A DNA stretch of 33,232 nt. Origin: Acidobacteriota bacterium. Lineage in GTDB: Bacteria > Actinomycetota > Acidimicrobiia > Spongiisociales > UBA5794. Numbering within the stretch: the first letter of the stretch is position 1; each line of letters opens with the position of its first letter. The translations under genes were made by a program, and so were the position numbers. The stretch covers positions 1 through 33,232 of the forward strand of contig JADFIY010000007.1 of assembly GCA_022566415.1 (NCBI GenBank), in the 5' to 3' direction. The notes under the pieces were generated by a model. That model worked only from the letters and a program-made list of their open reading frames with translations, did no database searches and had not been told where the DNA came from. Of the stretch, positions 1-31,123 are shown one piece after another.

Positions 1-131
1 TGCCTGGTGATAACACCGAGATGACGGTGACGTTGGGTAAGGCGATTGCTATGGATCAGGGTCTCCGGTTCGCTATCCGTGAGGGTGGCCGTACCGTCGG
101 CGCCGGCCGGGTAGTAGAGATCATCGAGTAG
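1..131 (+). CDS. tuf: Elongation factor Tu, 3' end only (first tuf copy)
   Basis: This is the C-terminal end of EF-Tu, the GTPase that carries aminoacyl-tRNA to the ribosomal A site. The reading frame begins at base 3 and ends at TAG 129-131. Bases 1-127 are identical to 19355-19481 in the complete tuf further on; the copies differ only in the last codon (GAG against GAA) and the stop (TAG against TGA). Such identity between duplicate tuf genes is usually kept by gene conversion. The upstream part, including the G domain, lies outside the window. The stop codon is already part of the first heptamer of a repeat array. Confidence 0.97.
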
Positions 132-194
132 TCACGAGTCACGAGTCACGAGCAGGAACGTATTGGAGCTCACGACTCGCGACTCGCGACTCAG
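130..194 (+). repeat. Heptamer repeat element, inverted arms (tuf-rpmG gap)
   Basis: Three AGTCACG units run head to tail from 130 to 150. After a spacer, three GACTCGC-type units run from 174 to 194. The second arm is roughly the reverse complement of the first, so the RNA could fold as a hairpin. The first unit begins inside the tuf stop codon. The element fills most of the tuf-rpmG gap. Confidence 0.85.
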
Positions 195-215
195 CGAGCG
201 AAGCGAGCGACATAA

Positions 216-377
216 ATGGCTAGCGCCAAACGACCGCCGATCACACTTGCCTGCGAGGTGTGCAAGCGGCGGAACTACGTAACCACGAAAAGCAAGGCCA
301 ACACCAGGGAACGCCTGGAGTTACGCAAGTACTGCCGCTGGTGCCGAGAGCACACGTTGCATAAGGAGACTCGCTGA
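216..377 (+). CDS. rpmG: Large ribosomal subunit protein bL33, zinc-binding form
   Basis: A 53-residue protein with the bL33 pattern of basic residues and two CxxC pairs (CEVC at residues 13-16, CRWC at 40-43). This is the zinc-containing C+ form of L33, a component of the 50S subunit near the E site. The length is normal for the family. The start is ATG 216; no strong Shine-Dalgarno sequence precedes it, only GC-rich GAGCGA repeats. In mycobacteria rpmG2 also lies just before the had genes and tRNA-Trp, so the context supports the call. Its last 12 coding bases (365-376) are repeated at 381-392 in the downstream hairpin. Confidence 0.95.
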
Positions 378-409
378 TACGGAGACTCGCTGGCGCTCGT
401 CTCCCGTAT
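377..409 (+). terminator. Imperfect hairpin after rpmG
   Basis: ATACGGAGAC (377-386) can pair with GTCTCCCGTAT (399-409) with one bulged base, forming a GC-rich hairpin directly after the rpmG stop codon. There is no T-run behind it, so it may be a processing or stabilising structure, or part of the neighbouring repeat element, instead of a true terminator. Confidence 0.4.
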
Positions 410-434
410 TACGTATCCCGTATCACGTATCACG
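406..434 (+). repeat. Heptamer repeat array, GTATYAC type
   Basis: Four tandem heptamers, GTATTAC, GTATCCC, GTATCAC and GTATCAC, occupy 406-433. This is the second sequence class of the heptamer family, also seen after rplK, before rplJ, after rpoC and after the complete tuf. Confidence 0.8.
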
Positions 435-458
435 CCGGGAACCGGTACTAGATACCTG

Positions 459-518
459 ATGGCAACCACGAACCACCCGTGGCTGCGACCGGGGCAACCG
501 GTACGCTGGCCCCCATGA
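459..518 (+). other. Possible 19-codon upstream ORF overlapping the dehydratase start
   Basis: An ATG at 459 opens a 19-codon frame that stops at TGA 516-518, overlapping the dehydratase ATG at 515 as ATGA. Neither start has a clear Shine-Dalgarno sequence. The overlap would allow translational coupling, but a frame this short could be chance. Confidence 0.25.
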
Positions 519-1378
519 CCCCAGCGGACATGGACGGGCTCGTCATTGGGCCCATCAGTCACGTCGTCGACAGGGAACGGATCGCTGCCTTCGTGGAGGC
601 GACGGGAGATGTACCGGAGCGCTGGCTCGAAAGCGCACCTCCCGGGTATGCCGCAGCCCTCCTGTTCCATGTGGCAGGCGAGTTCCTTTGGGATCCTCGC
701 ATCGCCGAGTACGTCAAGACGCTCATCCACGTCGACCAATCTTTCGCCTACCCGTCGCCGATCCGCCCCGGTGATGTCGTGGAGATCACGGGCACCGTCG
801 ATCGAGTGAGAGAACGATCCGGTACCTACTTCCTCATCTTTTCGGCGAACGCAGCCGTCGGCGATCGCCTGGTACTCGAGTCCCGCTCCAGCTTCCTCAT
901 GTCCAACCAGCCAGCAGGGGAGCCGTCGGCGGACCGGGGCGAACCTCCGGCCGACGCCAGGGCGACGAGCGACGTGCCGGGGAAGCGATCGCTCCCAGCA
1001 AACGGCGAAGTCGACGTCGTCGCCAGATCGGCGAGTCGGGCCGACCTGGTCAGGTACGGGGCGGCGACTGTGGACTTCAACCCGCTGCATTGGGACCACG
1101 AGGCGGCGCGGGCCGCCGGTCTCGACGGTGTGGTGGTGCATGGGCTGCTGCTCAACGCCTGGCTCACCCAGCATGCGGCGTCTTTCGCGGAGGGTGAGGC
1201 TCCCGTCGTCTCGATCAAGGCCAGGTTCCGCAACGCCCTCCGCCCCAATGTCGCTGCTGCCACCACAGCTGCGGTCGACTCCCGATCCGGGGACGAGGCG
1301 AAGCTGTCGTTGCAATTGACCGCAGGAGACGCCACGATCGTCACCGCAGACGCAACCATCCGTGGGGTAACGCCATGA
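515..1378 (+). CDS. Double-hotdog (3R)-hydroxyacyl dehydratase, HadA-HadB fusion-like (MaoC family)
   Basis: Counted from ATG 515 the protein has 287 residues; an in-frame GTG at 479 would add 12. Residues about 5-130 resemble the N-terminal hotdog domain of the FAS1-type dehydratase family, as in mycobacterial HadA. Residues about 165-287 resemble the MaoC/HadB domain and keep the hydratase-2 motif, with Tyr181, Asp187, Asn189-Pro190 and His192 followed by GVVVHG. A proline- and alanine-rich linker (131-165) joins them. The expected reaction is dehydration of (3R)-hydroxyacyl thioesters in fatty-acid elongation. In mycobacteria hadA, hadB and hadC are separate genes at this same locus between rpmG2 and tRNA-Trp. 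Here A and B appear fused, and no hadC is present. The stop overlaps the next start (ATGA at 1375). The substrate is inferred from synteny only. Confidence 0.8.
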   Translation: MTPADMDGLVIGPISHVVDRERIAAFVEATGDVPERWLESAPPGYAAALLFHVAGEFLWDPRIAEYVKTLIHVDQSFAYPSPIRPGDVVEITGTVDRVRERSGTYFLIFSANAAVGDRLVLESRSSFLMSNQPAGEPSADRGEPPADARATSDVPGKRSLPANGEVDVVARSASRADLVRYGAATVDFNPLHWDHEAARAAGLDGVVVHGLLLNAWLTQHAASFAEGEAPVVSIKARFRNALRPNVAAATTAAVDSRSGDEAKLSLQLTAGDATIVTADATIRGVTP

Positions 1379-1950
1379 GCGGGCGCGAGGTCGGACGATT
1401 CGACGAACAAGACCTGGTGAGGTTGGCGGTATTGGGTGACGATGCGGCGTTCGGTGAGCTCGTCAGGATCCACCAGCATGAGGTGTACACGGTGGCCCTA
1501 CGAATGGTCTCGGACCGGGAACTCGCTTACGACGTTTCCCAAGAGGCGTTTGTGCGAGCCTGGCGCGCCATCCCCCGATTCCGGGGCGATGCGAAGTTCT
1601 CCACCTGGATGCATCGGATCACGGTGAACACGGCGCTCACTCATCTCGAGCGCAGGAAGCGCACCAATACCGATGCGCTGGACGCCATGCACGTGGACCC
1701 AGAAGCCGACGGGCTGACCCCGGAACGTGCCGGTGAGAGCGCGGCAATGCGCCCCCACCTCGAAACCGCCCTTGGCGATCTCGCCGTCCCTTTGCGCACG
1801 GTCGTCGTCCTCAAGGACGTTTACGGCTGGAGCCACGCCGAGATCTCAGAGCATCTCGAGATCTCGATCACTGCGGCCAAGGTCAGATTGCATCGCGGGC
1901 GCAAGGTGCTGCGCTCCGCACTATGGGAACACAAGGGGGATCGCTCGTGA
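1375..1950 (+). CDS. ECF-type RNA polymerase sigma factor
   Basis: This 191-residue protein has the two-domain ECF layout. Sigma-2 spans about residues 26-96, with the DVSQEAFVRAW segment and a FSTWMHRITVN stretch. Sigma-4 spans about 128-183, with a helix-turn-helix (GWSHAEISEHLEISITAAKVRLHRG) ending in the usual basic helix. It should direct core RNA polymerase to a small regulon, probably in response to the anti-sigma factor encoded next. Its ATG overlaps the dehydratase stop (ATGA) and its own TGA overlaps the anti-sigma GTG (GTGA), so all three genes look translationally coupled. An ECF pair inside the rpmG to tRNA-Trp interval is unusual. The regulon cannot be told from this sequence. 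Confidence 0.92.
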   Translation: MSGREVGRFDEQDLVRLAVLGDDAAFGELVRIHQHEVYTVALRMVSDRELAYDVSQEAFVRAWRAIPRFRGDAKFSTWMHRITVNTALTHLERRKRTNTDALDAMHVDPEADGLTPERAGESAAMRPHLETALGDLAVPLRTVVVLKDVYGWSHAEISEHLEISITAAKVRLHRGRKVLRSALWEHKGDRS

Positions 1951-2303
1951 GTGCGACCTGCCGGATCGTTGCCATGCGGCTCCCCGACATCGGGGATCCA
2001 AGCGAATTGGGAACTCGCCTGGCCAAGCACACGGCGACCTGTTTGCGCTGCCAGGCCGAGGCCGCTCGCTACCGTTCGCTGCGGCGCCATCTCGCCGAGC
2101 TCTCCACGGTTACCTACCCGGCGCCGCAGGGATTCGTCTCATCGGTGATGGGGCGGCTGACCGATCCGGTCATCGAGGTAGCGAGGCACACCCGACAGAC
2201 GGTGAGGTCACGGGTCGTCGCCGTCGCCGCAGCCAGTGCCGCCGTCGTGGCCACCGCAGGCACCGTGGCTCTGATTCTCCGCCGTCTGCAGGCGCCGGTC
2301 TGA
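1947..2303 (+). CDS. Zinc-binding anti-sigma factor, membrane-anchored
   Basis: The gene starts at GTG 1947, overlapping the sigma-factor stop by GTGA, and encodes 118 residues. The N-terminal part contains HTATCLRC, the HxxxCxxC signature of zinc-binding anti-sigma (ZAS) domains, which hold an ECF sigma factor inactive at the membrane or until oxidised. Near the C-terminus is one hydrophobic stretch rich in Ala and Val followed by two arginines, consistent with a single transmembrane helix and a very short tail outside. With no extracytoplasmic sensor domain, a redox or zinc signal, or control by proteolysis, are reasonable guesses. Whether the M50 protease at 14337 acts on it is pure speculation. 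Confidence 0.82.
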   Translation: MSATCRIVAMRLPDIGDPSELGTRLAKHTATCLRCQAEAARYRSLRRHLAELSTVTYPAPQGFVSSVMGRLTDPVIEVARHTRQTVRSRVVAVAAASAAVVATAGTVALILRRLQAPV

Positions 2304-2362
2304 GCCGGGCTCGTCGTCGCCGACCTGGGCGGATCGTCGTACGATGGGGGCGCCACCGTGCG

Positions 2363-2392
2363 TTGTGCTTTGCAAGAAACGCTCCATATACT
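2363..2392 (+). promoter_or_regulatory. Promoter for tRNA-Trp-secE-nusG
   Basis: TTGTGC (2363-2368) and TATACT (2387-2392) are separated by 18 bp and resemble a housekeeping sigma promoter. Transcription would start near 2399, about 18 bases before the tRNA. Confidence 0.65.
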
Positions 2393-2416
2393 CGTGTCCG
2401 GGCCTGAACCGGCCGG

Positions 2417-2490
2417 AGGGGTGTAGCTCCAATCGGTAGAGCGCCGGTCTCCAAAACCGGATGTTGTGGGTTCGAGTCCCGCCACCCCTG
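2417..2490 (+). tRNA. trpT: tRNA-Trp (anticodon CCA)
   Basis: The acceptor arms AGGGGTG (2417-2423) and CACCCCT (2483-2489) pair fully and are followed by discriminator G 2490. The D stem pairs GCTC with GAGC, the anticodon stem pairs CCGGT with ACCGG around loop CTCCAAA (anticodon CCA), and the T arm contains TTCGAGT. The 3' CCA is not encoded. tRNA-Trp directly before secE is the standard actinobacterial arrangement and it is probably processed from a common transcript. Confidence 0.97.
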
Positions 2491-2509
2491 CCCCTAGGAG
2501 GACCGCAGG

Positions 2510-2782
2510 ATGAACCGCCAGATGCGACGGCTGCAGGCCAAGGAAGAGGCGCGCGCCAAGAAGCAGCAGCAGCCGACCAAGCGCAAAGAGCGAACCGGTG
2601 TCGTGCAGTTCCTCCAAGAGGTGCGCGCCGAGCTCAGGAAGGTCACCTGGCCGTCTCGCGAGGAACTGGCGACCTACACCATCGTCGTGTTTGCGGTGAG
2701 CACGGCACTGACCTTCTACATCGCCGGACTCGACTACGTGTTCAACAGCAGCATTCTGTCCGTGTTGAGGAACCTGGGCTGA
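2510..2782 (+). CDS. secE: Preprotein translocase subunit SecE
   Basis: A 90-residue SecE, the small clamp subunit of the SecYEG channel. A basic, glutamine-rich N-terminus leads into the conserved amphipathic segment (FLQEVRAELRKVTWPSREEL, about residues 34-53), followed by one transmembrane helix around residues 56-72. AGGAGG at 2496-2501 lies eight bases before ATG 2510. The stop overlaps the nusG start as TGATG (2780-2784). Single-span SecE is normal outside enterobacteria. Confidence 0.97.
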   Translation: MNRQMRRLQAKEEARAKKQQQPTKRKERTGVVQFLQEVRAELRKVTWPSREELATYTIVVFAVSTALTFYIAGLDYVFNSSILSVLRNLG

Positions 2783-3402
2783 TGAGTGAAACCATCGAAG
2801 AAGTCCTCGAAGAAACCGAGGAAGATGTAGTTGTCGAGGAACAGCCGCTCAGCCCCTACGACCTCCCTGGTGGCTGGTTCGTCATCCACTCCTACTCGGG
2901 TTACGAGAACAAGGTGAAGGCAAACCTGGAGAGCCGCGTCAAGTCGATGCACCTGGAGGACAAGGTTTTCGATGTCGTCATCCCGATGGAGGATGTCGTC
3001 GAGTACAAGGGCGGCAAGAAGGTCACCGTCCAGCGCAAGAAATTCCCCGGCTACGTTCTCGTTCGCATGTACCTGGAAGACGACACGTGGTACGCGGTGC
3101 GCAACACGCCGAGCGTGACCGGGTTCGTCGGATCCTCCACCCAGCCGTCTCCCCTGTCGCGCCGTGAGGTTGAGCGCATCCTCGGAGTTGAGAAAGAAGA
3201 CGGCGCCAAAAAGGAGAAGCCGACGTTCAAACCGGCGTGGGAGGTCTCCGAGACCGTCAGGGTGATCGAGGGCCCGTTTGCCGACTTCAACGGCGTCATC
3301 GAAGACATCAACGTCGACCAGTCGAAGGTGCGGGTGCTCGTGGACATCTTCGGCCGCGAGACGCCGGTCGAGCTCAACTTCGATCAGATCGTCAAGTACT
3401 AA
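2782..3402 (+). CDS. nusG: Transcription termination/antitermination factor NusG
   Basis: NusG, 206 residues from ATG 2782. An acidic N-terminal extension of about 30 residues (many Glu and Val) precedes the NGN domain, which begins near GGWFVIHSYSGYENKVK and contains the FPGYVLVRM segment. The C-terminal KOW domain carries VRVIEGPFADFNGVI. It binds RNA polymerase and couples it to Rho or the ribosome. An acidic N-terminal extension is common in actinobacterial NusG. Co-transcribed with secE. Confidence 0.97.
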   Translation: MSETIEEVLEETEEDVVVEEQPLSPYDLPGGWFVIHSYSGYENKVKANLESRVKSMHLEDKVFDVVIPMEDVVEYKGGKKVTVQRKKFPGYVLVRMYLEDDTWYAVRNTPSVTGFVGSSTQPSPLSRREVERILGVEKEDGAKKEKPTFKPAWEVSETVRVIEGPFADFNGVIEDINVDQSKVRVLVDIFGRETPVELNFDQIVKY

Positions 3403-3514
3403 AAAAGGGTGGTAGCCAATGACGAGTGCCATGTGCCGCCGCCCGGACCATTTCAGGGTTGAATGGAGTTTCTGATGAGCGGCGGCCCGCTCAGAATTTG
3501 CCGACCACCCTTTT
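3403..3514 (+). promoter_or_regulatory. Structured leader between nusG and rplK (possible L1/L11 control site)
   Basis: Two perfect 11-base arms, AAAAGGGTGGT (3403-3413) and ACCACCCTTTT (3504-3514), enclose a second pairing, GCCGCCGC (3435-3442) with GCGGCGGC (3479-3486). An alternative local hairpin is GAGCGG/CCGCTC (3477-3492). A small frame (ATG 3419 to TGA 3473-3475, 18 codons) sits inside, with a Shine-Dalgarno-like AAAGGG in the left arm. L1 commonly represses rplK-rplA by binding this leader region in other bacteria. I cannot confirm the L1 recognition motif here. Confidence 0.45.
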
Positions 3515-3532
3515 ACCGATTGAGGTTTCCTG

Positions 3533-3961
3533 ATGGGTCGTAAAAGGCTGATGACCGTGCTCAAGCTGCAGATTCCGGCCGGGCAGGCAAGCCCTGCCCC
3601 GCCGGTGGGCCAGGCGCTCGGCCAGCACGGGGTCAACATCATGGAGTTCGTCCAGGCGTACAACGCAGAGACGGCGCAACACGCGGGAACGATCATCCCG
3701 GCCGAGATCTCGATCTACGAGGACAGGAGCTTCACGTTCATCACCAAGACGCCTCCGGCGGCGGTGCTGCTGCGGCAGGCGGCGCGCGTGGAGAAGGGAT
3801 CGCCGGAGCCACACCGGGAGAAAGTTGGCAACGTTTCCAGATCCCAGATTCGCCAGATCGCCGAGAGAAAGATGCCCGACCTGAACGCCAACGACATCGA
3901 GGCGGCGATGAAGATCGTCGAGGGAACGGCCCGGTCGATGGGGATTACGGTCAGCGGCTAG
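3533..3961 (+). CDS. rplK: Large ribosomal subunit protein uL11
   Basis: L11, 142 residues, normal length. It binds the GTPase-associated centre of 23S rRNA. The N-terminal domain has [30 protein letters not shown] with the conserved proline-rich helix, and the C-terminal RNA-binding domain contains [21 protein letters not shown] and the closing [11 protein letters not shown] 3533 follows TGAGG (3521-3525). A second ATG seven residues downstream (MTVLKLQ) is possible, but the upstream start matches the family N-terminus and its Shine-Dalgarno spacing. Confidence 0.96.
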
Positions 3962-3966
3962 CGAGC

Positions 3967-3997
3967 ACGTAATACGTAATACGTGATACGTAATACG
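3967..3997 (+). repeat. Heptamer repeat array, ACGTAAT type (rplK-rplA gap)
   Basis: Tandem heptamers ACGTAAT, ACGTAAT, ACGTGAT, ACGTAAT plus a trailing ACG begin six bases after the rplK stop codon. The unit is nearly its own reverse complement, so the array can self-pair. Confidence 0.85.
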
Positions 3998-4047
3998 CAG
4001 AAGTGGGAGAGGCGCGAGCCTCGTGAGAACCACGTCAGGAGACCAAA

Positions 4048-4767
4048 ATGACCACCAAGTCCAAGAACCGATCGGCCATCGAGGCTGAGTTCGATACCAC
4101 AGGGAGCTACGGGCCCAAAGAGGCGGTCGAGCTCGTCAAACAGATGGCTTTCGCCAAGTTCGACGAGAGCGTGGACATGGCGTTCAAGCTCGGAATCGAC
4201 GCCAGGCAGGCCGACCAGCTCGTTCGCAGCACCGTCAGCCTCCCCCACGGCACCGGCAAGGACGTCCGCGTCGTTGTATTTGCGGAGAGCGACCTGGCCC
4301 GCGCCGCAGAGGAGGCCGGTGCCGACCTGGTCGGGGGCAAGGAGCTTGCCGATGCCATCCAGGCCGGCTCCCAGTCGCTCGACTTCGATGTGACGATCGC
4401 CTCCCCGGACATGATGTCGGTCGTCGGCAAGCTCGGTCCGGTCCTTGGCCCTCGCGGTTTGATGCCGAACCCGAAGAGCGGGACGGTCACCCAGGATATC
4501 GGCAAGACCGTAGAGGCGTTCAAGGCCGGAAGGGTCGAGTACCGCAACGACCGGTACGGGAACGTCCATGTGCCCATCGGTCGCGTCTCGTTCGACGCCG
4601 ACAAGCTGGTGGAGAACCTGGTCGCCATCGGCGACGAGATCTATCGCGCCCGGCCGGCGGCGACGAAAGGCCGCTTCGTCGAGAGCGTGACGATCGCCTC
4701 CACCATGGGCCCCGGAGTAAAGATCGATTTAGGTGATCTGGAAGATCTGATCAAAGAGAGCCGGTAG
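4048..4767 (+). CDS. rplA: Large ribosomal subunit protein uL1
   Basis: L1, 239 residues, the mobile stalk protein that helps release deacylated tRNA and often represses its own operon. The sequence contains the family signature around [20 protein letters not shown] and the closing [26 protein letters not shown] at 4038-4042 precedes ATG 4048. It is co-transcribed with rplK across an 86-base gap carrying a heptamer array. Its stop codon runs straight into another heptamer array. Confidence 0.97.
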
Positions 4768-4835
4768 TCACAAGTCACAAGTCGCAAGCAAACCGCCTCG
4801 TCCAATGGCTTGCGTCTTGTGTTCGCGTCTTGAGA
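4768..4835 (+). repeat. Heptamer repeat element, inverted arms (after rplA)
   Basis: Three heptamers TCACAAG, TCACAAG and TCGCAAG (4768-4788) follow the rplA stop. An inverted arm of CTTGCGT, CTTGTGT, one six-base unit and CTTGAGA spans 4809-4835. Together they could form a hairpin that acts as a boundary after rplA. No T-run follows. Confidence 0.8.
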
Positions 4836-4848
4836 CCAAATAAACCTG

Positions 4849-4878
4849 TTGGCAGGTACTGGGCCACCCTGCAATACT
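4849..4878 (+). promoter_or_regulatory. Promoter for the rplJL leader transcript
   Basis: TTGGCA (4849-4854) and AATACT (4873-4878) with an 18-bp spacer. The predicted start is about 4885, giving an unusually long leader of roughly 530 bases before rplJ, or an independent small RNA ending at the hairpin at 5098-5123. Confidence 0.55.
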
Positions 4879-4884
4879 CTGGGG

Positions 4885-5123
4885 TACATAGCGGGGGGCC
4901 TTGGAGACCAGGCTCAAGGGACGATCCACCACCGTTCCAGGCGGGAAACCCAGCCACCCCGGACCACCCGAGGGTCAGCCCCTACCCTGGCCCTCAATCC
5001 GAGGTGGAGACGAGTAGATGGCTTCCTGGCCCGCCGTCTGCCCGAATCCTCGGAAGTGGGACCCGCGTGCGGGTCGCCACGGTCTCACCGCTGTGACAGG
5101 CGCCCGGCTACCGCCGGGCGCCT
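4885..5123 (+). ncRNA. GC-rich structured RNA region of unknown type, upstream of rplJ
   Basis: This stretch has no convincing coding frame; the open frames in it are proline- and arginine-rich with no family resemblance and no Shine-Dalgarno. It lies between a promoter and a strong hairpin and contains several local stems: GACCCG/CGGGTC (5060-5075), CGGT/ACCG (5080-5090) and the end hairpin. I checked it by eye against tmRNA, RNase P RNA, SRP RNA, T-box and cobalamin riboswitch signatures and found none. It may be a separate RNA or the 5' half of the rplJ leader. Confidence 0.4.
5098..5123 (+). terminator. Perfect 11-bp hairpin without T-run
   Basis: AGGCGCCCGGC (5098-5108) pairs perfectly with GCCGGGCGCCT (5113-5123) around the loop TACC. 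The sequence after it is GCGCGTAATG, so there is no U-tract. A second perfect small hairpin, GAGCAC-TTC-GTGCTC, follows at 5133-5147. GC-rich hairpins lacking U-tracts are often proposed as terminators in actinobacteria. Confidence 0.6.
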
Positions 5124-5150
5124 GCGCGTAATGAGCACTTCGTGCTCGGT

Positions 5151-5220
5151 ATTACGTACTACGTATTACGTACCACGTATTACGAAAACTCCGGTCGTGA
5201 TACGTAATACGTAATACGTT
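5151..5220 (+). repeat. Heptamer repeat element, ATTACGT / ATACGTA arms
   Basis: Five heptamers ATTACGT, ACTACGT, ATTACGT, ACCACGT and ATTACGA (5151-5185) are followed after 14 bases by an opposite arm of three ATACGTA-type heptamers (5200-5220). The arms are complementary, so this inserts a large hairpin into the rplJ leader. Confidence 0.85.
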
Positions 5221-5229
5221 GTACGCCCT

Positions 5230-5377
5230 GGCGTTAGATCACGCCGAGCCCTACGATCTCCCGAACAACCTCAAATGCCTGAGACCGCAGGTGCTTTTGC
5301 ATGAGACCGCTTCGGCGGCGCCGGCGTAGGTCGTCCTCCAAAGAGGGCTCCTCGTCTCACGGCGGGAGCCCGTTTTT
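5230..5377 (+). promoter_or_regulatory. L10-type ribosomal protein leader with attenuator, upstream of rplJ
   Basis: A hairpin GGCGT/ACGCC (5230-5245) is followed by CCTG-AGACCG-CAGG (5278-5291), a repeated GAGACCGC at 5281 and 5303, and CCGC-TTCG-GCGG just after. Then GGGCTCC (5345-5351) pairs with GGAGCCC (5365-5371), followed by G and five Ts (5373-5377). That last element looks like an intrinsic terminator. In other bacteria the L10(L12)4 complex binds the leader at such GAGACC-containing folds and controls termination. The attenuation model here is inferred from that family knowledge. Confidence 0.62.
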
Positions 5378-5416
5378 CGTATCGCCGGACCAGAAGCAAC
5401 CACAGGAGGACGACGA

Positions 5417-6223
5417 ATGCCACGACCGGAGAAGGTCCAGGCCGTCGTTGACATCAAGCAGCGCCTCGACGGAGCGCAGGCCGTGTTTGTGACCGAGTAC
5501 GCAGGGCTTTCTGTCAAAGAGCAGCAGGTGTTGCGTCGCCAGCTCAAGGCGAGCGGTGCCGAGATGAAGGTCGTCAAGATGACCCTGGCCCGGCTCGCCG
5601 CCGCTCATATGACCGACGAGCTGAGCGATCTCTTGTTTGGTCCGACGGCGCTCACCTTTGCCGACGGCGACCCAGCGGCCGCGGCCAAAGCCCTGAAGGC
5701 ATTCGCCAAGGAACACGACGCCTTGATCATCAAGGGTGGGGTCCTCGGCGAAGAGTTCCTGAGCCCGGAACGCGTCTCGCAACTCGCCGATCTCGATCCT
5801 CGCGAGGTTCTGTTGGCCAAGATCGCCGGCGCCTTTGCTGCACCCATGGCCCAGATGGCCGGTCTGCTCGCCGCCCTGCCGCGCAACGCGGCCACCGTGT
5901 TCCAGCAGCTACTGGAGAAGAAAGAGGAAGAAAGTCCGGGGTCTTCAGTCGTCATTCCTCAGCCCGAGGAAGAAAGCACGGAGTCTTCAGTCGACAGTCC
6001 TCAGCCCGAGGAAGAAAGCACGGAGTCTTCAGTCGACAGTCCTCGGCCCGAGGAAGAAAGCACGGAGTCTTCAGTCGACAGTCCTCGGCCCGAGGAAGAA
6101 ACCGCGGCTGAGACTGAGGACGCCGCGGCTGAGACTGAGGACGCCGCGGCTGAGACTGAGGACGCCGCGGCTGAGACTGAGGGCGCCGCGGCTGAGACTG
6201 AGGACGCCGCGGCTGACGACTGA
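5417..6223 (+). CDS. rplJ: Large ribosomal subunit protein uL10 with repetitive acidic C-terminal tail
   Basis: L10 anchors the L7/L12 stalk dimers on the ribosome. Residues 1-169 form a complete family core (MPRPEKVQAVVDIKQRL at the start; helix AAPMAQMAGLLAALPRNAATVFQQLLE near the end, where L7/L12 dimers bind). Residues 170-268 are an added tail. Four 14-residue repeats (EEESTESSVDSPQP type, from 42-bp repeats at 5924-6091) are followed by five 7-residue AAETEDA repeats (21-bp repeats at 6102-6206). The tail is strongly acidic, probably disordered, and placed just after the L12-binding helix. AGGAGGA (5404-5410) precedes ATG 5417. L10 is usually about 170-180 residues. Confidence 0.95.
   Translation: MPRPEKVQAVVDIKQRLDGAQAVFVTEYAGLSVKEQQVLRRQLKASGAEMKVVKMTLARLAAAHMTDELSDLLFGPTALTFADGDPAAAAKALKAFAKEHDALIIKGGVLGEEFLSPERVSQLADLDPREVLLAKIAGAFAAPMAQMAGLLAALPRNAATVFQQLLEKKEEESPGSSVVIPQPEEESTESSVDSPQPEEESTESSVDSPRPEEESTESSVDSPRPEEETAAETEDAAAETEDAAAETEDAAAETEGAAAETEDAAADD
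5924..6219 (+). repeat. In-frame tandem repeats (42 bp x 4, then 21 bp x 5) in the rplJ tail
   Basis: Units of 42 bp lie at 5924-5965, 5966-6007, 6008-6049 and 6050-6091, the first being the most diverged. Units of 21 bp start at 6102, 6123, 6144, 6165 and 6186, with a partial sixth. Both lengths are multiples of 7 and of 3. Each later 42-bp unit contains AGTCTTC, AGTCGAC, AGTCCTC in heptamer register. Just after the stop region, ACTGATG, ACTGACG and ACTGAAA (6219-6239) again repeat every 7 bases. Confidence 0.92.
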
Positions 6224-6248
6224 TGACTGACGACTGAAAGGAGAACCC

Positions 6249-6638
6249 ATGGCAACCAAGGTGAAGAGTAAAGAGCTGCTCGAGGCGTTTGAGGAGATGA
6301 GCGTCCTCGAACTGTCCGAGTTCCTCAAGGCCTTCGAGGAGAAATTCGATGTGACGGCGGCCGCACCCGTCGCCGTAGTCGCAGCCCCCGCTGGCGGTGG
6401 CGATGGCGAAGCCGCCGCCGAAGAGAAGGACGACTACGACGTCATGCTCACCGAAGTCGGCCAGAAGAAGGTGCAAGTGATCAAGGAGGTCCGCAACCTC
6501 ACCAGCCTCGGCCTGAAGGAGGCCAAGACGCTCGTGGACGGTGCGCCCGCGTCGGTCCTCGAGGGTGTGGACAAGGAAGCTGCCGAAAAGGCGAAGGAGG
6601 CCCTGGAGGTAGCCGGCGCCACGGTCGAGTTGAGGTAA
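6249..6638 (+). CDS. rplL: Large ribosomal subunit protein bL12 (L7/L12)
   Basis: L7/L12, 129 residues, the multicopy stalk protein that recruits translational GTPases. The N-terminal dimerisation domain ([24 protein letters not shown]) is followed by an Ala/Val/Gly hinge and the C-terminal factor-binding domain with [35 protein letters not shown] at 6237-6243 serves ATG 6249. It follows rplJ by 25 bases, the standard rplJL pair. A terminator-like hairpin and heptamers follow, which would reduce read-through into rpoBC. Confidence 0.97.
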
Positions 6639-6643
6639 CGAAG

Positions 6644-6753
6644 ACGCAAGTCGCAAGTCGCAAGTCAAAACGGGAGACGGATCGGTCGAGAGCGAGCCCG
6701 CTTTTTGTTGATGTGGGTGCTGGGGGTTCCTGCTTGTGACCTGTGACTTGGGA
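6644..6753 (+). repeat. Heptamer repeat element, inverted arms (after rplL)
   Basis: ACGCAAG, TCGCAAG, TCGCAAG (6644-6664) begin six bases after the rplL stop codon. CTTGTGA, CCTGTGA, CTTGGGA (6733-6753) form the opposite arm. The terminator-like hairpin lies between the arms. Confidence 0.75.
6667..6705 (+). terminator. Possible intrinsic terminator between rplL and rpoB
   Basis: AAAACGGG (6667-6674) can pair with CCCGCTTTT (6697-6705) with one bulge, and five Ts run from 6702. The long loop makes it weaker than a classic terminator. It would allow partial separation of rplJL from rpoBC expression. Confidence 0.4.
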
Positions 6754-6772
6754 CTCATTGGTCGGATGACCC

Positions 6773-6802
6773 TTGACTCCTGGTCACGGTTCGCGGTATC
6801 GT
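6773..6802 (+). promoter_or_regulatory. Upstream promoter candidate for rpoBC
   Basis: TTGACT (6773-6778) and TATCGT (6797-6802), 18-bp spacer, in the 302-base rplL-rpoB gap. Confidence 0.45.
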
Positions 6803-6856
6803 CTGAGGGCAAGTTGAGTGTGTTTTCGCGACTCTCCATAGGAAGAGCCGGAATAG

Positions 6857-6886
6857 TTGTGCGCTATCCCGGTTTACTGCTATGCT
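6857..6886 (+). promoter_or_regulatory. Proximal promoter candidate for rpoBC
   Basis: TTGTGC (6857-6862) and TATGCT (6881-6886), 18-bp spacer. Its -35 hexamer is the same as that of the tRNA-Trp promoter. The start would be near 6892, leaving a leader of about 50 bases before rpoB. Confidence 0.6.
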
Positions 6887-10305: not shown

Positions 10306-14232
<3,927 letters not shown>

Positions 14233-14267: not shown

Positions 14268-14295
14268 GTAGTCCGTATTACGTAGTCCGTATTAC
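14268..14295 (+). repeat. Heptamer repeat array, GTAGTCC/GTATTAC
   Basis: Alternating heptamers GTAGTCC, GTATTAC, GTAGTCC, GTATTAC directly abut the rpoC terminator hairpin. Confidence 0.8.
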
Positions 14296-14336
14296 GTAGC
14301 GCCTACCTGTCCTCATAACCCTCCTACCCTTCACGC

Positions 14337-19486: not shown

Positions 19487-19521
19487 ACGTATCACGGACT
19501 ACGTAATACGTAATACGTAAT
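19487..19521 (+). repeat. Heptamer repeat array, ACGTAAT type (tuf-rpsJ gap)
   Basis: ACGTATC, ACGGACT, ACGTAAT, ACGTAAT, ACGTAAT start one base after the tuf stop codon and fill half of the gap to rpsJ. I see no promoter in this gap, so rpsJ is probably read from the str promoter. Confidence 0.85.
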
Positions 19522-19550
19522 ACGGCGAGCGAGGAACGAGCGAGCACAAA

Positions 19551-20494: not shown

Positions 20495-21323
20495 TCTCAG
20501 CGCAGAGCTGTATACCGCAGCCGGCGAGCGGGCCGGTGATGTCGAGCTGAATCCCGACATCTTCGGCATCGAGCCGAACATGGACGTGATGCACCAGGTA
20601 GTGACCGCCCAGCTGGCGGCGGCCCGTGCCGGCACTCACTCCACCAAGACCCGCGCCGAGGTGCGTGGCGGTGGGCGAAAGCCCTGGCGTCAGAAGGGCT
20701 TGGGCAGAGCACGCCACGGATCGATCCGTTCTCCGCAATGGACCGGTGGCGGTGTCGCCCACGGACCGAAGCCCCGTGACTATTCACAGCGGACACCGCG
20801 GAAGATGAAGCGGCTGGCGCTGCGATCCGCGTTGTCGGCGCGGGCGTCCGACGGCCAGATCAAGGTCGTGGAGACCTTTGACGTGTGGGACAGGCCGAGG
20901 ACCAAGAACGCGGTCGCCCTGCTCGAGGCGATGGGTGTTTCGGGGAAGGTGCTGCTCCTCGCCGAGGATCATGAACGTGTAGCCATCAAGTCGTTCCGCA
21001 ATATCGACGGTGTGATCGCCTCCAACCTCGGTCAGGCCAACACCTACGACGTACTGTGGGCGGAGACCGTGATCATGTCGAAAGGGACATTGGAGCTTGG
21101 CCAATCGGTACCCCGCGGGACTGAAGAACACGCGGAACAAAGTCAAGAGTCAAGAGTCGAGAGTCGAGAGCCAGAAGATGTTCTGGCTGAGGACTCGGGG
21201 CTCGAGACTCCGGACTCTGGACTCGCGACTCCGGACTCTGGACTCTCGACTCCGGACTCCGGACTCGAGACTCCGGACTCTGGACTCGCGACTGACCACT
21301 CCGAGCGAAGCGAGGACTCATGA
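20487..21323 (+). CDS. rplD: Large ribosomal subunit protein uL4 with repetitive C-terminal tail
   Basis: L4, 278 residues from GTG 20487. Residues 1-210 are a full L4 core, including the exit-tunnel loop ([25 protein letters not shown]) and the C-terminal [15 protein letters not shown] segment. Residues 211-278 are an extra tail encoded by heptamer arrays. It contains QESRVESRE, then five 7-residue repeats of SGLxTPD type, then SERSEDS. Bacterial L4 is usually near 205-215 residues. In some bacteria L4 also represses the S10 operon; no such site is evident here. The stop overlaps the rplW ATG (ATGA). Confidence 0.95.
21141..21295 (+). repeat. Translated heptamer repeat element with inverted arms in the rplD 3' end
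   Basis: The left arm has five heptamers (AGTCAAG, AGTCAAG, AGTCGAG, AGTCGAG, AGCCAGA; 21141-21175). The right arm has fifteen uninterrupted heptamers of GGACTCN/CGACTCC type (21191-21295). Because 21 is three heptamers, the right arm is translated as five 7-residue repeats. The two arms are reverse complements in pattern, matching the intergenic elements. Confidence 0.93.
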
Positions 21324-23077: not shown

Positions 23078-24672
23078 TGGGCCAGAAGATCCACCCATAC
23101 GGGCTGCGGCTCGGGATCATCACAGACTGGAAGTCGCGCTGGTACAGCGAGAAGGACTACGCGTTGCTGGTCAACGAGGACAACCGAATCCGCAAGTACC
23201 TACTCGGCGAGCTCAAGCGCGGCGCCGTTTCCCGGATCGACATCGAGCGACTCGGTGACAAGAAGGTGCAGATCGATATCCACACCGGGCGACCCGGTGT
23301 GGTGATCGGGCGCGGCGGATCCGAAGCGGACCGGCTGCGCGCCGGGCTCGAGAAGCTCAGCGGGCGTCAGGTCAAATTCAACGTCATCGAAGTCGCCAAC
23401 CCTGAGCTTGACGCCACCCTGCTGGCTCGCAGCGTCGCCGACCAACTCGAGGGTCGTGTTGCCTTCCGGCGGGCCATGAAGCGTGCGGTATCCACTGCGC
23501 TCAAGGCCGGAGCCGAGGGTGTTCGAATTCAGGCAAGTGGCCGGCTCGGCGGATCCGACATGGGTCGACGCGAGTGGTACCTCGAAGGCAGGGTCCCGCT
23601 GCACACCTTGCGAGCCGACGTCGACTACGGCACCGCGGTGGCGCGCACCTCCGTCGGCGCCGTCGGCATCAAGTGCTGGGTGTACAAGGGCGACATAGTC
23701 ATCAGCGGCGCCCTCCGCAGCGACAAGATCTCCGCCGAGGCTCGCCTCGCCGCCGGCGGTCCCGCGCCACGTCGTCGATCGGCTCGTTCCCGCGCAGAAA
23801 CGGCAGCGGGCGACAAGGTAGGCGGCAAGCGCCTCATCGAGGCGGGCGGCGGCAAGCGAACCGTCGAGGCGGGTGGCAAGCGGCTCATCGAGGCCGGCGG
23901 AGGCAAGAGGAAGGCGACGGCTGCCGACGCAGCCGCCGAGTTCGCAGCCGCCCGGGAGGAAGCGGAAGAAGTCGTCGAGGACACTCCCGTCGGAGAGACC
24001 GAAGTTCCCAGTGACCAGTTGCCAGTTCCCAGTCCCGAGGCAGAAGGAGTGGTCGCCACCGAATCGCTGCCCGAAAAGGCCCAACGTGAAGACGCAGTCA
24101 CTTCCGAGGCGTCAGCCGAGGAAGCAGCAAGCATCGCCGCTGAGGAGGTGGTCGCCACCGAATCAGTCGAGAGTCCTGAGTCGAGAGTCGAGAGTTCCGA
24201 CCCCGAGGAGGTGGTCGCCACCGAATCAGTCGAGAGTCCTGAGTCGAGAGTCGAAAGTTCCGGCCCCGAGGAGGTGGTCGCCACCGAATCGCTGCCCGAA
24301 GAGGCCAAGCGCGAAGACGCAGTCACTGCCGAGGGCTTGCCCGAGGCAGCAGAAAGCATGGCAGTAGAAGAAACTGCCCCAGAGCAAGGCTCCTGGAGAG
24401 GTGAGGGAGAACCACCTGCAGGATTCTCCATCAAGGGCAAAGAGAGTTCGATGCTCTTCCATCGTCCCGACAGCAGCATGTACAACCGGACCAAGGCCGA
24501 GGTCTGGTTCAACACTGAGGAGGCGGCGCAGGCAGCGGGTTTCACGGCGGCGAAGACGCACCCGAACAGTCGAGAGTCAACAGTCGAGAGTCGGGAGCAA
24601 GACGACACACCGGACTCTGGACTCTCGACTCAAGACTCATCAGACAGCGACTCCGAAGGAGGCGCCGACTGA
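23077..24672 (+). CDS. rpsC: Small ribosomal subunit protein uS3 with ~300-residue C-terminal extension
   Basis: S3, 531 residues against a usual 210-280. Residues 1-225 are a normal core, with the KH domain loop GRGG at 78-81 and the [22 protein letters not shown] signature. Residues 226-282 are basic and repetitive ([13 protein letters not shown]). Residues 283-447 are acidic, low-complexity linker with a 21-residue repeat ([21 protein letters not shown] type) encoded by 63-bp repeats. Residues about 448-495 form a compact, non-repetitive stretch ([34 protein letters not shown]) resembling the small actinobacterial 'sunset' domain. A last heptamer-encoded tail ends at 531. S3 forms the mRNA entry site with S4 and S5. 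The rplP Shine-Dalgarno AAGGAGG (24656-24662) lies within the tail. Confidence 0.95.
24003..24262 (+). repeat. Translated heptamer arrays and 63-bp duplication in the rpsC tail
   Basis: Five heptamers AGTTCCC, AGTGACC, AGTTGCC, AGTTCCC, AGTCCCG lie at 24003-24037. A 63-bp unit (nine heptamers long) at 24145-24207 is repeated at 24208-24270, each copy holding five AGTCGAG-type heptamers (24165-24199 and 24228-24262). Confidence 0.9.
24568..24639 (+). repeat. Translated heptamer element with inverted arms at the rpsC 3' end
   Basis: AGTCGAG, AGTCAAC, AGTCGAG, AGTCGGG and AGCAAGA (24568-24602) are followed by GGACTCT, GGACTCT, CGACTCA and AGACTCA (24612-24639). It has the same two-arm layout as the intergenic element at 130-194 but is open in frame. 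Confidence 0.9.
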
Positions 24673-28380: not shown

Positions 28381-28958
28381 TGACAGATCGCGGAGGCCGC
28401 AGAGATCGCAGGGATCGTCGCGAGTCAGAGTTCGATGAGCGGGTCATCGCCATTAATCGGGTGGCCAAGGTGGTCAAGGGCGGGCGCCGTTTCTCATTCA
28501 CCGCGCTCGTCACCGTCGGCGACGGCAAGGGTCGGGTCGGTATCGGGTACGGGAAGGCCAAGGAAGTTCCGATGGCGATCCAGAAAGGCATGGACATTGC
28601 CCGCAAGAGCATGTTCTCGGTGCCGATGGCCGGGCAGACCACCATCCATACGGTGATCGGTCGGTATGGGGCTGCCAGCGTGCTGTTGAAGCCGGCCTCC
28701 CCTGGTACCGGTGTCATCGCAGGAGGCGCGGTGCGCCAGATCATCGAGGCAGCCGGGATCAAGGATGTGCTCGCCAAGTCGCTTGGATCCGCCACTCATG
28801 TCAACGTCGCCAAGGCGACCGTCCGGGCCCTGCAAAGCCAGCAGCGCCCAGACGAGGTCGCCAAGGCCAGGGGCAAGCAGCCAGAAGAGCTGTTCCCGCC
28901 GGCGCTTCTGGCCGCCTACCGCTCGGCCGAGCTCATGAAGAGCGAGGTGGCCAAGTGA
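28380..28958 (+). CDS. rpsE: Small ribosomal subunit protein uS5
   Basis: S5, 192 residues, important for decoding accuracy. The N-terminus is rich in Arg/Asp ([51 protein letters not shown]), and the second domain has [37 protein letters not shown]. Overlaps rpmD by one base (TGATG). Confidence 0.97.
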
Positions 28959-29152
28959 TGGCGACCAAGACCAAAAACCTGAAGATCACTCTGGTGAAGA
29001 GCACGATCGGGGAGAAGCCGAAGGTGCGAGCTACCGTCGAGAGCCTTGGCCTGCGCAAGATCAGGCAAAGCGTTGAACGCCCTGACACCCCGGATGTACG
29101 CGGCATGGTGTTCCGCGCCCAGCATTTGCTCGATGTGGAGGAAGTGGGATGA
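28958..29152 (+). CDS. rpmD: Large ribosomal subunit protein uL30
   Basis: L30, 64 residues from ATG 28958. [50 protein letters not shown] fits the family throughout. An in-frame GTG one codon earlier overlaps the rpsE stop and is a less likely start. The stop overlaps the rplO ATG. Confidence 0.96.
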
Positions 29153-29592
29153 GGCTGCAACTCCATCACCTTCGGCCGGCTGAGGGATCGAAGAAACGAA
29201 AGATTCGCGTTGGCAGGGGTGAAGCCGGCCGACGCGGCAAGACCGCCGGGCGGGGGACCAAGGGACTGAAGGCGAGGAGCAAGGTGCGTCGCGGCTTCGA
29301 AGGCGGACAGATGCCCCTGCAGAGGCGCATGCCCAAACTTCCCGGCTTCACCAACCCGAATCGTGTCGAGTACACCGTTCTCAACGTGGGACGCCTGGCG
29401 GAATTCGAGGATGGCAGTACTGTGACCGTCGACGATTTGCGCGCCAGAGGGCTCGTCAAGCACCGCGGGTTGGTCAAGGTGCTTGGTGAGGGCGATATCG
29501 ATCGGGCGCTCACGGTGAAGGCACATGCCTTCTCGCTCGGAGCGGTTGAGAAGATCCAAGCCGCCGGTGGCGCGGTAGAGGTGGTCGAGTGA
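29149..29592 (+). CDS. rplO: Large ribosomal subunit protein uL15
   Basis: L15, 147 residues, a late 50S assembly protein. The N-terminus [39 protein letters not shown] and [18 protein letters not shown] are typical, as is the C-terminal [25 protein letters not shown]. The stop codon is followed at once by a heptamer element, unlike the tight coupling of upstream genes. Confidence 0.97.
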
Positions 29593-29594
29593 TG

Positions 29595-29716
29595 AGTCGA
29601 GAGCCCGGAGCCTTGAGTCACACGTCTCAAGTCTCAAGCAGAGAGGTAACCGCGTCTGGCGTTCTGCAACCACCGGTTCCTCTTGCGACTTGCATCTTGC
29701 GTCTTGCGTCTTCCGT
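29595..29716 (+). repeat. Heptamer repeat element, inverted arms (rplO-secY gap)
   Basis: Seven heptamers (AGTCGAG, AGCCCGG, AGCCTTG, AGTCACA, CGTCTCA, AGTCTCA, AGCAGAG; 29595-29643) begin two bases after the rplO stop. Five CTTGCGT-type heptamers (29682-29716) form the opposite arm. The 180-base gap is the only sizeable break in the S10-spc block; I see no convincing promoter in it. Confidence 0.85.
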
Positions 29717-29772
29717 ACACGTTGTCGTAAAGCAGGACCTGTGTCTCGGGTAACGTCTACGAGGTACTTCCT

Positions 29773-31089
29773 ATGACCGCCATGCTCACCGCCACCAGGA
29801 ATGCGTTCCGGATCCGCGATCTGCGGAACAAGATCCTGTTCACCCTTTTCATCTTCATCCTGTATCGGTTCGGGGCCGCGGTGCCGGTGCCGGGCGTCGA
29901 CCTGGATGCGATAGCGGTATTTTCCGAGCAGGCGGCGAACCAGGGCTTCATCGGGGTGCTCAACCTGTTCTCCGGGGGGGCGCTGACCCGGTTGTCGGTG
30001 TTCGCCCTCGGAATCATGCCCTACATCACGGCGTCGATCATTCTCCAGCTGCTGGCGGTCGTTATTCCCCGTCTGCAGGCGTTGCAGGAGGAGGGTGAAA
30101 CCGGGCGCAAGGTCATCACCCAGTGGACCCGTTACCTGACGGTGATCATCGCCCTGTTGCAGGCAACCGGGTTCTCCTTCTTGTTCCATTCCGGCCAGCT
30201 GACCGGCGGTATCGACCTGATCCCCGACTACACCATTCGCAACGTTGTGATCATCGTGATCACGATGACCGCAGGGACGGCTCTGCTGATGTGGTTCGGT
30301 GAGCTGATCACCCAGCGCGGGATCGGCAATGGCATGTCGCTGCTGATCTTCATCTCGATCGTCTCGCAGATCCCCTCCCAGCTGGGGATTCTGCTCAACA
30401 GCTCACCGACCGGAGTGTTCATCCTCATTGTGGGGACGATGGTTCTGTTGACGGTTGGGATTCTGTTCATCGAGCAAGGCCAGCGGCGGATTCCAGTCCA
30501 GTTCTCCAAACGCGTCCGCGGCCGCAAGGTGATGGGCGGCAATACCACCTACATCCCGATGAAGGTGAACATGGCCGGCGTCATCCCGGTGATTTTCGCA
30601 ACCTCGATCATGTACTTCCCTGCCCTGCTGGCCTCGGTGCTGCCTCCGACCGGGTGGGGCAACGCGGTGAGGAATTGGATCAACGACAACCTGCTGTCGA
30701 CGACGGGCGGAGGGTTCTCGCCGAGCCTGTGGTACATCGCCTTGCTCGCCCTGTTGGTCGTGTTCTTCACCTACTTCTACACCGCGATCCAGTTCGATCC
30801 GGCGAAACAAGCCGACATGATCCAACGCCAGGGCGGGTACATCCCCGGTATCCGGCCGGGCCGGGCGACCGAGGAATATCTGGCCTACATATTGAGCAGG
30901 ATCACCTTCCCCGGTGCGTTGTATCTGGCGATTGTGACCGTGCTCCCTTCGATCATGGGATGGTACTTCGGGGTCCCGGTCGGGCTCTCCGGTGTGTCGA
31001 TCATCATTGTGGCCGGTGTCGCTCTCGAGACGATGAAACAGGTCGAATCGCAGCTCATGATGAGGAACTACGAGGGGTTCTTGAGTTGA
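29773..31089 (+). CDS. secY: Preprotein translocase channel subunit SecY
   Basis: SecY, 438 residues, the pore of the Sec translocon. About ten hydrophobic segments are visible. The N-terminal RIRDLRNKILFTLFIFILYRFGAAVPVPGVD, the plug region following it, YIPMKVNMAGVIPVIFATSI and YNPADQADMIQ-like FDPAKQADMIQRQGGYIPGIRPG in the ribosome-binding loop are typical. GAGG (29761-29764) precedes ATG 29773. Followed by a heptamer array and adk in the standard secY-adk-map order. Confidence 0.97.
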   Translation: MTAMLTATRNAFRIRDLRNKILFTLFIFILYRFGAAVPVPGVDLDAIAVFSEQAANQGFIGVLNLFSGGALTRLSVFALGIMPYITASIILQLLAVVIPRLQALQEEGETGRKVITQWTRYLTVIIALLQATGFSFLFHSGQLTGGIDLIPDYTIRNVVIIVITMTAGTALLMWFGELITQRGIGNGMSLLIFISIVSQIPSQLGILLNSSPTGVFILIVGTMVLLTVGILFIEQGQRRIPVQFSKRVRGRKVMGGNTTYIPMKVNMAGVIPVIFATSIMYFPALLASVLPPTGWGNAVRNWINDNLLSTTGGGFSPSLWYIALLALLVVFFTYFYTAIQFDPAKQADMIQRQGGYIPGIRPGRATEEYLAYILSRITFPGALYLAIVTVLPSIMGWYFGVPVGLSGVSIIIVAGVALETMKQVESQLMMRNYEGFLS

Positions 31090-31123
31090 GTCGCGAGGCG
31101 AGAGTCGCGAGTCGCGAGTGATG
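31089..31123 (+). repeat. Heptamer repeat array spanning the secY stop to the adk start
   Basis: AGTCGCG, AGGCGAG, AGTCGCG, AGTCGCG and AGTGATG run from the last base of the secY stop to the adk ATG, so the array fills the whole gap and leaves adk without a recognisable Shine-Dalgarno sequence. Confidence 0.85.

What the first reader, a model, noticed from the sequence alone, without database searches (positions are those of the whole stretch)
130..31123. A dispersed family of degenerate tandem heptanucleotide elements at gene 3' ends
At 130, 406, 3967, 4768, 5151, 6644, 14268, 19487, 29595 and 31089, and inside rplJ, rplD and rpsC, the sequence repeats with a strict 7-base period. Two classes appear: AGTCNNG with its complement GACTCNG, and ACGTAAT/GTATTAC. 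Many copies consist of two opposed arms around a short spacer, so they would fold as hairpins in RNA. Most begin within a few bases of a stop codon, and several include it. Heptamer STRR repeats of cyanobacteria and the Rickettsia palindromic elements are known loose parallels; I know of no named family matching these. A role in 3'-end protection, transcript boundaries or protein binding, or spread as a selfish element, is inference.
Basis: partly seen in the sequence, partly recalled or inferred. Interest (0 to 1): 0.85.

Follow-up and report, generated by a model that had tools for sequence, protein, structure and literature searches.

The report
Seven-base repeat hairpins after bacterial genes
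In one lineage of uncultured Acidimicrobiia, short tandem repeats with a seven-base unit and a shared core (roughly AGTYNYV) sit just after stop codons, often as two mirrored arms that can fold into a hairpin, and their exact unit differs between lineages while the layout stays the same; this resembles little-studied seven-base repeats of Xanthomonas and cyanobacteria and shows how such repeats turn over together across a genome.

Summary
Window: 20 period-7 arrays against 0.35 expected. Genome (744 kb read): 173 arrays, 92% with midpoints outside genes, mostly 3-5 units. Layout is fixed: the AGT arm begins at the upstream stop codon (median 5 nt) and the mirrored ACT arm about 64 nt downstream; neighbouring opposed arms come AGT-then-ACT 32 times and never reversed. 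Arms match their own partner better than others'. Between two same-genus genomes most array loci are shared, and array indels are often multiples of 7, so slippage acts. In other lineages the same gaps can hold arrays of different heptamers, while arrays within one genome share units: concerted turnover. No RAYT transposase or reverse transcriptase was found, and no T-run follows the arms. The closest described relatives are the Xanthomonas GGGAATC repeats (intergenic, just behind genes, inverted pairs). Verdict: a new variant of a known kind, heptanucleotide repeats. A function (3' transcript boundary) is unproven.

The parts
127..197 (+). Two-arm element after tuf copy 1 (stop TAG 127-129 overlaps the first AGTC): AGTCACG x3, spacer, CGCGACT x3; folds as a hairpin
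405..435 (+). Single-arm CGTATTA/CGTATCA array about 28 nt after the likely rpmG stop (rpmG about 216-377)
3964..3999 (+). ACGTAAT array in the rplK-rplA gap, upstream of the GTGGGAG stretch that recurs before rplA; the same gap holds arrays with other heptamers in several relatives
4765..4837 (+). Two-arm element at the rplA stop (TAG 4765-4767): AGTCACA/AGTCGCA arm and opposed CTTGCGT/CTTGTGT arm
5149..5226 (+). Two-arm GTATTAC / GTAATAC element in the rplA-rplJ gap, not next to a stop; strongest hairpin tested (z -7.1, with the adjacent small hairpin)
5924..6238 (+). Heptamers in the 3' end of rplJ (L10 acidic tail): 42-nt unit x4 (AGTCTTC AGTCGAC AGTCCTC AGCCC...) and 21-nt unit x6 (GGCTGAG ACTGAGG ACGCCGC); the first is AGT-type, the second ACT-type
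6640..6760 (+). Two-arm element in the rplL-rpoB gap: AGTCGCA arm 6640-6670, spacer with a GC-rich stretch and T-run, opposed arm 6735-6760
14268..14299 (+). GTAGTCCGTATTAC x2 array after rpoC, directly behind a strong hairpin at about 14237-14268
19487..19526 (+). TACGTAA array at the stop of tuf copy 2 (TGA 19483-19485)
21138..21294 (+). In-frame two-arm element in the 3' end of rplD: AGTCAAG/AGTCGAG arm, spacer, GACTCNN arm
24003..24036 (+). AGTTCCC-type array inside rpsC
24142..24290 (+). 63-nt repeat x2.4 inside rpsC containing AGTCGAG arrays (24165-24195, 24228-24258)
24565..24632 (+). AGTCGAG array and opposed GGACTCT array at the 3' end of rpsC
29590..29717 (+). AGTC array at the stop of rplO (29590-29638) and opposed TCTTGCG array (29681-29717)
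31086..31121 (+). AGTCGCG array overlapping the secY stop (TGA 31087-31089) and running up to the adk start at 31118

Best explanation
These are degenerate heptanucleotide repeat elements of a clade of Acidimicrobiia. The typical element is: stop codon, three to five AGTYNYV units, a spacer of about 15-60 nt (sometimes holding a GC-rich hairpin), then three to five units of the reverse complement. Shown: the 7-base period, the core, the AGT-first order, the 3'-end address, unit-wise length change, and sharing of unit sequences across loci of one genome. Inferred: units gain and lose copies by replication slippage, and both the two arms of an element and dispersed elements overwrite one another by template switching or gene conversion. 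Such copying keeps period and polarity (pairing needs them) but lets the variable bases drift in concert, so each lineage ends with its own heptamers. The elements persist in gene 3' flanks because sequence is little constrained there, the AGT sense in this genome is nearly stop-free (harmless if a stop is lost, hence the coding tails in L10, L4 and S3), and a stem without a T-run may help mark or shield transcript ends.
For: Period 7: 173 arrays in 744 kb. 14 of 173 array midpoints in CDS although 84% of the DNA is coding. AGT arm median 5 nt from the upstream stop, ACT arm 64 nt. Order +- 32, -+ 0 in G000; 6:0 in G001, 6:0 in G019, 4:1 in G022. Own-arm complementarity 12.5 vs 8.2 for swapped arms, no permutation of 5000 as high. 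Unseeded, strand-free EM gives the core in G000 and G019 and a similar AG-YYNY core in G022. Array loci shared with same-genus G001: 11 gaps with arrays in both, 4 in one only; indels touching arrays are multiples of 7 in 10/24 vs 8/139 elsewhere, p = 1.5e-5. Unit sharing between loci within a genome 0.19 vs 0.014 between genomes, p = 2e-4. Some whole elements share spacers. AGT sense 12 stop triplets/kb vs 55 on the other strand and 38 expected. Folding z at array-bearing 3' ends -2.2 vs -0.8 without arrays, p = 2.5e-4.
Against: Neither slippage nor conversion was observed directly; unit sharing could also come from selection by a binding protein. About a third of arm pairs belong to different families and pair poorly, so a hairpin is not always maintained. 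Array lengths cluster at 3-5 units with few long arrays, which free slippage alone would not predict. The orientation labels rest on AGT-like motifs, so the stop-poor result is partly tied to the definition. Other lineages have AGTCNNT units whose sense is not stop-free. Absolute folding energy does not differ between array and array-free 3' ends.
Confidence: 0.5

Rival explanations
1. Selected RNA elements: the paired arms form a 3'-terminal stem that stops exonucleases or assists termination in both directions, and the repeats are kept because of it.
For: Position at stop codons; convergent gaps densest (36 arrays in 11.3 kb vs 24 in 22.4 kb of divergent gaps); better folding than shuffles; own-arm complementarity; arms flanking a GC-rich hairpin in the rplL-rpoB gap of several lineages.
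Against: No T-run after the second arm (1 of 160 with TTTT); none of the elements is called as a terminator in window 1-20000; a third of arm pairs are from different families; MFE equal in array-free ends; several window arrays are single-armed.
Confidence: 0.25
2. A mobile or formerly mobile palindromic element (REP/BIME-like or MITE-like) that inserts near stop codons, its arms later eroded and expanded by slippage.
For: Fixed inverted-arm polarity, 3'-end address, dispersed copies sharing spacer sequence (L156 about 8164-8217 vs L188 near 542, 54 nt at 91%; recurring CAGCAAGRCAAGA spacer).
Against: No Y1 transposase (PF01797) in G000 and one hit in 60 genomes; no clean insertion in 48 orthologous gaps, and the best presence/absence case leaves a TACGTA behind, as a deletion would; most spacers look unrelated.
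Confidence: 0.15
3. Binding arrays for a DNA- or RNA-binding protein (iteron-like, or for chromosome organisation), with unit and protein co-evolving in each lineage.
For: Strict 7-bp spacing, preferred 3-5 units, one shared core across genera, genome-specific unit sets.
Against: Several different unit families coexist in one genome; no candidate protein was identified; many genomes of the same family have few or none of the two patterns searched.
Confidence: 0.09
4. Chance or assembly artefact.
For: The genome is a fragmented metagenome draft (272 contigs).
Against: 20 observed vs 0.35 expected; independent assemblies carry arrays at the same gaps; arrays lie inside contigs and are short.
Confidence: 0.01

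Closest known systems
GGGAATC heptamer repeats of Xanthomonas and GGGGA(C/T)T repeats of Nostoc (PMC4692102)
   Same: Heterogeneous 7-base units, mostly four in Xanthomonas, dispersed, 89-93% intergenic, mean 28 nt from the upstream ORF against 160 nt to the next, 70-75 inverted pairs per Xanthomonas genome.
   Different: G-quadruplex-forming GGG tracts define them; most units here lack GGG (the AGTTCCC family and some GGYC units have it). Here several families coexist with a common AGTYNYV core.
TAACTGA direct repeats of Beggiatoaceae, some cyanobacteria and Bacteroidetes (PMC4679880)
   Same: Intergenic heptamer arrays; indels in 7-nt steps between close strains; different heptamers mixed in some genomes. 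TAACTGA arrays read AGTTATC on the other strand, which fits AGTYNYV.
   Different: One fixed unit, mostly just upstream of start codons in the Guaymas Beggiatoaceae genome, only one inverted set there.
Long simple sequence repeats of 5-11 bases, heptanucleotides most abundant (Mrazek 2007, as summarised in PMC4679880)
   Same: A genome-wide excess of 7-base tandem units, with slippage proposed.
   Different: A general category; no polarity, core or concerted turnover in the summary read. The original paper is not held.
Heptanucleotide elements of Geobacter metallireducens (PMC2700814)
   Same: 49 elements with four tandem heptamers (GGACCGG), and another class of sites with five heptamers (MTYCTGA).
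   Different: Fixed consensus per class; described as predicted regulatory elements.
STRR repeats of heterocystous cyanobacteria (from memory, Mazel 1990)
   Same: Tandem heptamers; from memory the units CCCCAGT and CAACAGT rotate to AGTCCCC and AGTCAAC, matching the AGT core.
   Different: Unit sequences not verified here; different phylum; a match to such a short core is not rare by chance.
REP/BIME palindromes with RAYT transposases
   Same: Inverted pairs in 3' extragenic space.
   Different: No conserved 20-40 nt REP unit; no Y1 transposase found.
SARP operator heptamers of Streptomyces (PMC8780764)
   Same: Seven-base repeats in Actinomycetota.
   Different: Heptamers spaced by 4 or 15 nt at promoters; here contiguous and at 3' ends.

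Membership tests
Heptanucleotide long simple sequence repeats | Excess of 7-base tandem units over other unit lengths | tested here: met
   173 at lag 7 vs 3-13 at lags 4, 5, 8, 10, 11, 13
Heptanucleotide long simple sequence repeats | Copy number changes by whole units between relatives | tested here: met
   10/24 array indels are multiples of 7 vs 8/139 elsewhere
G4-forming heptamer repeats (Xanthomonas/Nostoc) | GGG or GGGG tract in each unit | tested here: not met
   consensus AGTYNYV; only the AGTTCCC family and some rarer units contain GGG on one strand
G4-forming heptamer repeats (Xanthomonas/Nostoc) | Intergenic, close to the upstream ORF, with inverted pairs | tested here: met
TAACTGA repeats | TAACTGA unit just upstream of start codons | tested here: not met
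   other units; the AGT arm follows stop codons, the ACT arm is a median 55 nt before the next start
REP/BIME with RAYT | Y1 (RAYT) transposase in the genome | tested here: not met
   none in G000 (draft 92% complete)
REP/BIME with RAYT | Conserved palindromic unit of 20-40 nt | tested here: not met
   only the heptamer core is common; one spacer subfamily recurs
REP/BIME with RAYT | 3' extragenic position, inverted pairs | tested here: met
Intrinsic terminators | GC-rich stem followed by T-run | tested here: not met
   1 of 160 flanks has TTTT
Rickettsia palindromic elements | In-frame insertion into protein genes | tested here: inconclusive
   rplJ, rplD and rpsC tails contain heptamers in frame, but as 3'-end tails; only 14/173 arrays have midpoints in CDS
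Cyanobacterial STRR | Specific heptamers in heterocystous cyanobacteria | not tested
   unit sequences recalled only; no cyanobacterial genome was read
RNA element with a 3'-end function | Transcripts end at or near the element | not testable with these tools
   needs RNA-seq

The most novel reading that the evidence does not exclude
A clade-wide dispersed repeat system with a fixed heptamer core and AGT-first polarity, in which the variable bases of all copies in a genome change together while elements stay at gene 3' ends. This would imply either an undescribed homogenising copy mechanism acting on 7-base arrays or a co-evolving recognition factor, and would join the scattered bacterial heptamer repeats (Acidimicrobiia, Beggiatoaceae, cyanobacteria) into one phenomenon.
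Probability: 0.2. Interest if true: 0.75.

Novelty: new variant of a known kind. Interest (0 to 1): 0.52.

Why it matters
Why bacteria favour 7-base tandem units is still open. This clade offers array-rich and array-poor species side by side, a shared core, a strict polarity rule and concerted unit turnover, so slippage, conversion, mobility and protein-binding models make different, testable predictions. It also shows repeats becoming protein sequence in ribosomal proteins L10, L4 and S3.

Tried and rejected
Palindrome-plus-one-base unit (TACGTA+A, TCGCGA+C): fits some families but not AGTTCCC or AGTCGCA, so dropped as a general rule. RAYT mobilisation: no PF01797 in G000. Reverse-transcriptase origin: no PF00078 in G000 and no obvious link with array-rich genomes. 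Missing mismatch repair as the cause: MutS_V absent from 57 of 60 genomes, array-rich and array-poor alike. Conserved position as evidence of function: a first comparison gave OR 8, p = 0.001, but restricting to gaps of at least 50 nt in array-bearing contigs removed it (OR 2.7, p = 0.41), so arrays may simply occupy the available gaps. Stop codon in register with the heptamer: only weak (p = 0.046). Direct ortholog comparison of the window's own gaps in G001 failed because the region was not found in that 60%-complete draft. Rfam gave only a tRNA. The G006, G014 and G052 samples were too small to serve as controls.
Full report
Where it is. The window is the whole of contig C51 of a 2.57-Mb metagenome draft (272 contigs, 92% complete). 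Its ribosomal protein L1 is closest (71-74% identity) to uncultured Acidimicrobiia; the contig carries a tuf-rpmG-secE-nusG-rplKAJL-rpoBC block and ribosomal protein operons.

The observation. Period 7 stands out: 20 arrays in the window at 12/14 matches against 0.35 expected from order-5 Markov simulations, and 173 arrays in the 744 kb of this genome that I read, against 3-13 for lags 4, 5, 8, 10, 11 and 13. Pattern counts over the whole draft agree: 260 sites of TACGTAATACGTAATACG with up to 3 mismatches and none for the reversed control; 319 sites of GAGTCNNGAGTCNNGAGTC with up to 2 mismatches against 61 for the control. That second control is not neutral, because AGTC-type arrays can also contain CTGA at lag 7.

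Anatomy. Fourteen of 173 array midpoints are in coding sequence although 84% of the DNA is coding (genes called with a simple codon-usage script). An expectation-maximisation alignment without seed and without strand information gives A(0.66) G(0.97) T(0.79) C(0.64) N Y and a last base that is almost never T; G019, another genus of the family, gives nearly the same, and G022 a similar AG-YYNY pattern from few arrays. The families AGTCGCA, CGTATTA, AGTTCCC, AGTCNNG and AGTCNTC are variants of this core. Most arrays have 3-5 units. In co-directional gaps the AGT arm lies a median 5 nt from the upstream stop and the ACT arm 64 nt from it; in convergent gaps the arms next to the right-hand gene's stop are of the opposite sense, that is AGT-type in that gene's own sense. 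Neighbouring opposed arms come as AGT-then-ACT 32 times and never the other way; in G001 6:0, in G019 6:0, in G022 4:1. Arms resemble the reverse complement of their own partner more than that of other elements (12.5 vs 8.2; none of 5000 permutations as high), yet roughly a third of pairs have arms of different families, so polarity is not just a by-product of pairing.

RNA structure. The elements at 127, 4765 and 5149 fold as hairpins better than shuffles; others in the window do not. Gene ends with arrays have lower folding z-scores than ends without (-2.2 vs -0.8), but the same absolute energy. There is no T-run after the second arm, so these are not canonical intrinsic terminators.

Evolution. 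The same-genus genome G001 (95% protein identity) shares most array loci: 11 orthologous gaps have arrays in both, 4 in one only, 33 in neither. Indels that touch arrays are multiples of 7 in 10 of 24 cases, against 8 of 139 elsewhere (p = 1.5e-5). Further away, gaps such as tuf-rpmG, rplK-rplA and rplL-rpoB hold arrays with quite different heptamers (rplK-rplA: ACGTAAT here, GTACTTC in L080, GTACCTG in L081, GTACCAA in L083, AGTACGT in L064 and L076). Arrays of one genome share 7-mers at different loci (0.19) far more than arrays of different genomes do (0.014; p = 2e-4). That is concerted turnover. The positional agreement itself is not evidence of selection: once gap length is controlled it is no longer significant. 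Distribution is patchy: 33 of 296 genomes sampled in the class have AGTC four times at 7-base spacing, most of them in the window's order, and sister species can differ strongly (G005 vs G022, G004 vs G021).

A natural comparison sits in the window: the two tuf copies are identical over about the last 120 coding bases and diverge at the last codon, where two different array families begin.

Coding capture. The tails of L10 (rplJ), L4 (rplD) and S3 (rpsC) contain heptamer arms in frame. An acidic L10 tail is common in the clade; in L066 it also contains heptamers of another family. The AGT sense has 12 stop triplets per kb, against 55 on the other strand and 38 expected, so it can mostly be read through in any frame; this does not hold in all lineages (AGTCGCT in G062).

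Mechanism. Slippage is supported by the whole-unit indels. Exchange between arms and between loci is inferred from own-arm similarity and genome-wide unit sharing. Copying of larger pieces has also happened: one spacer family (CAGCAAGRCAAGA) recurs at several loci and two compound elements share 54 nt at 91%. No Y1 transposase or reverse transcriptase was found in this genome, and MutS_V is absent from nearly all relatives whether or not they have arrays.

Known parallels. Xanthomonas GGGAATC repeats share the habit closely: heptamer, mostly four units, intergenic, 28 nt behind the upstream ORF, inverted pairs (PMC4692102). They differ in unit and in G-quadruplex potential. Beggiatoaceae TAACTGA repeats (PMC4679880) read AGTTATC on the other strand; Geobacter metallireducens has its own heptamer elements (PMC2700814). 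Whether the AGT core is truly shared across phyla was not tested.

Conclusion. A real and well-organised repeat family, best filed as a new variant of the known heptanucleotide repeats. How it arises and spreads is partly shown; what it does for the cell is not.

Noticed in passing
window 1-129 and 19357-19485: Two tuf genes whose 3' coding ends are identical up to the last codon but carry different array families after the stop; consistent with gene conversion limited to the coding part.
   Followed up: partly
window 192-210, 19527-19545, 21302-21313; L153:7602, L156:13727 and others: A companion motif (AGCGAGCGMAGCGAGCG and variants) often borders the arrays on the outside: 10 of 17 sites lie within 30 bp of an array.
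   Followed up: partly
L151:9826-10193, L156:8127-8260, L188:488-1301: Long compound elements that mix AGTCNTC and GGYC heptamers with a recurring CAGCAAGRCAAGA spacer.
   Followed up: partly
window 23821-23907 and 24142-24290: The rpsC product has a long C-terminal extension (531 aa in all) with 24-27-nt and 63-nt coding repeats.
   Followed up: no
G007:C188, G024:C14, G052:C57: Only three of 60 genomes carry MutS_V genes, each as two neighbouring open frames.
   Followed up: no
window 14237-14268; L154 about 18700, L168 about 2810: Strong hairpins without a T-run directly after stop codons, followed by a TACGTAA-type array.
   Followed up: no
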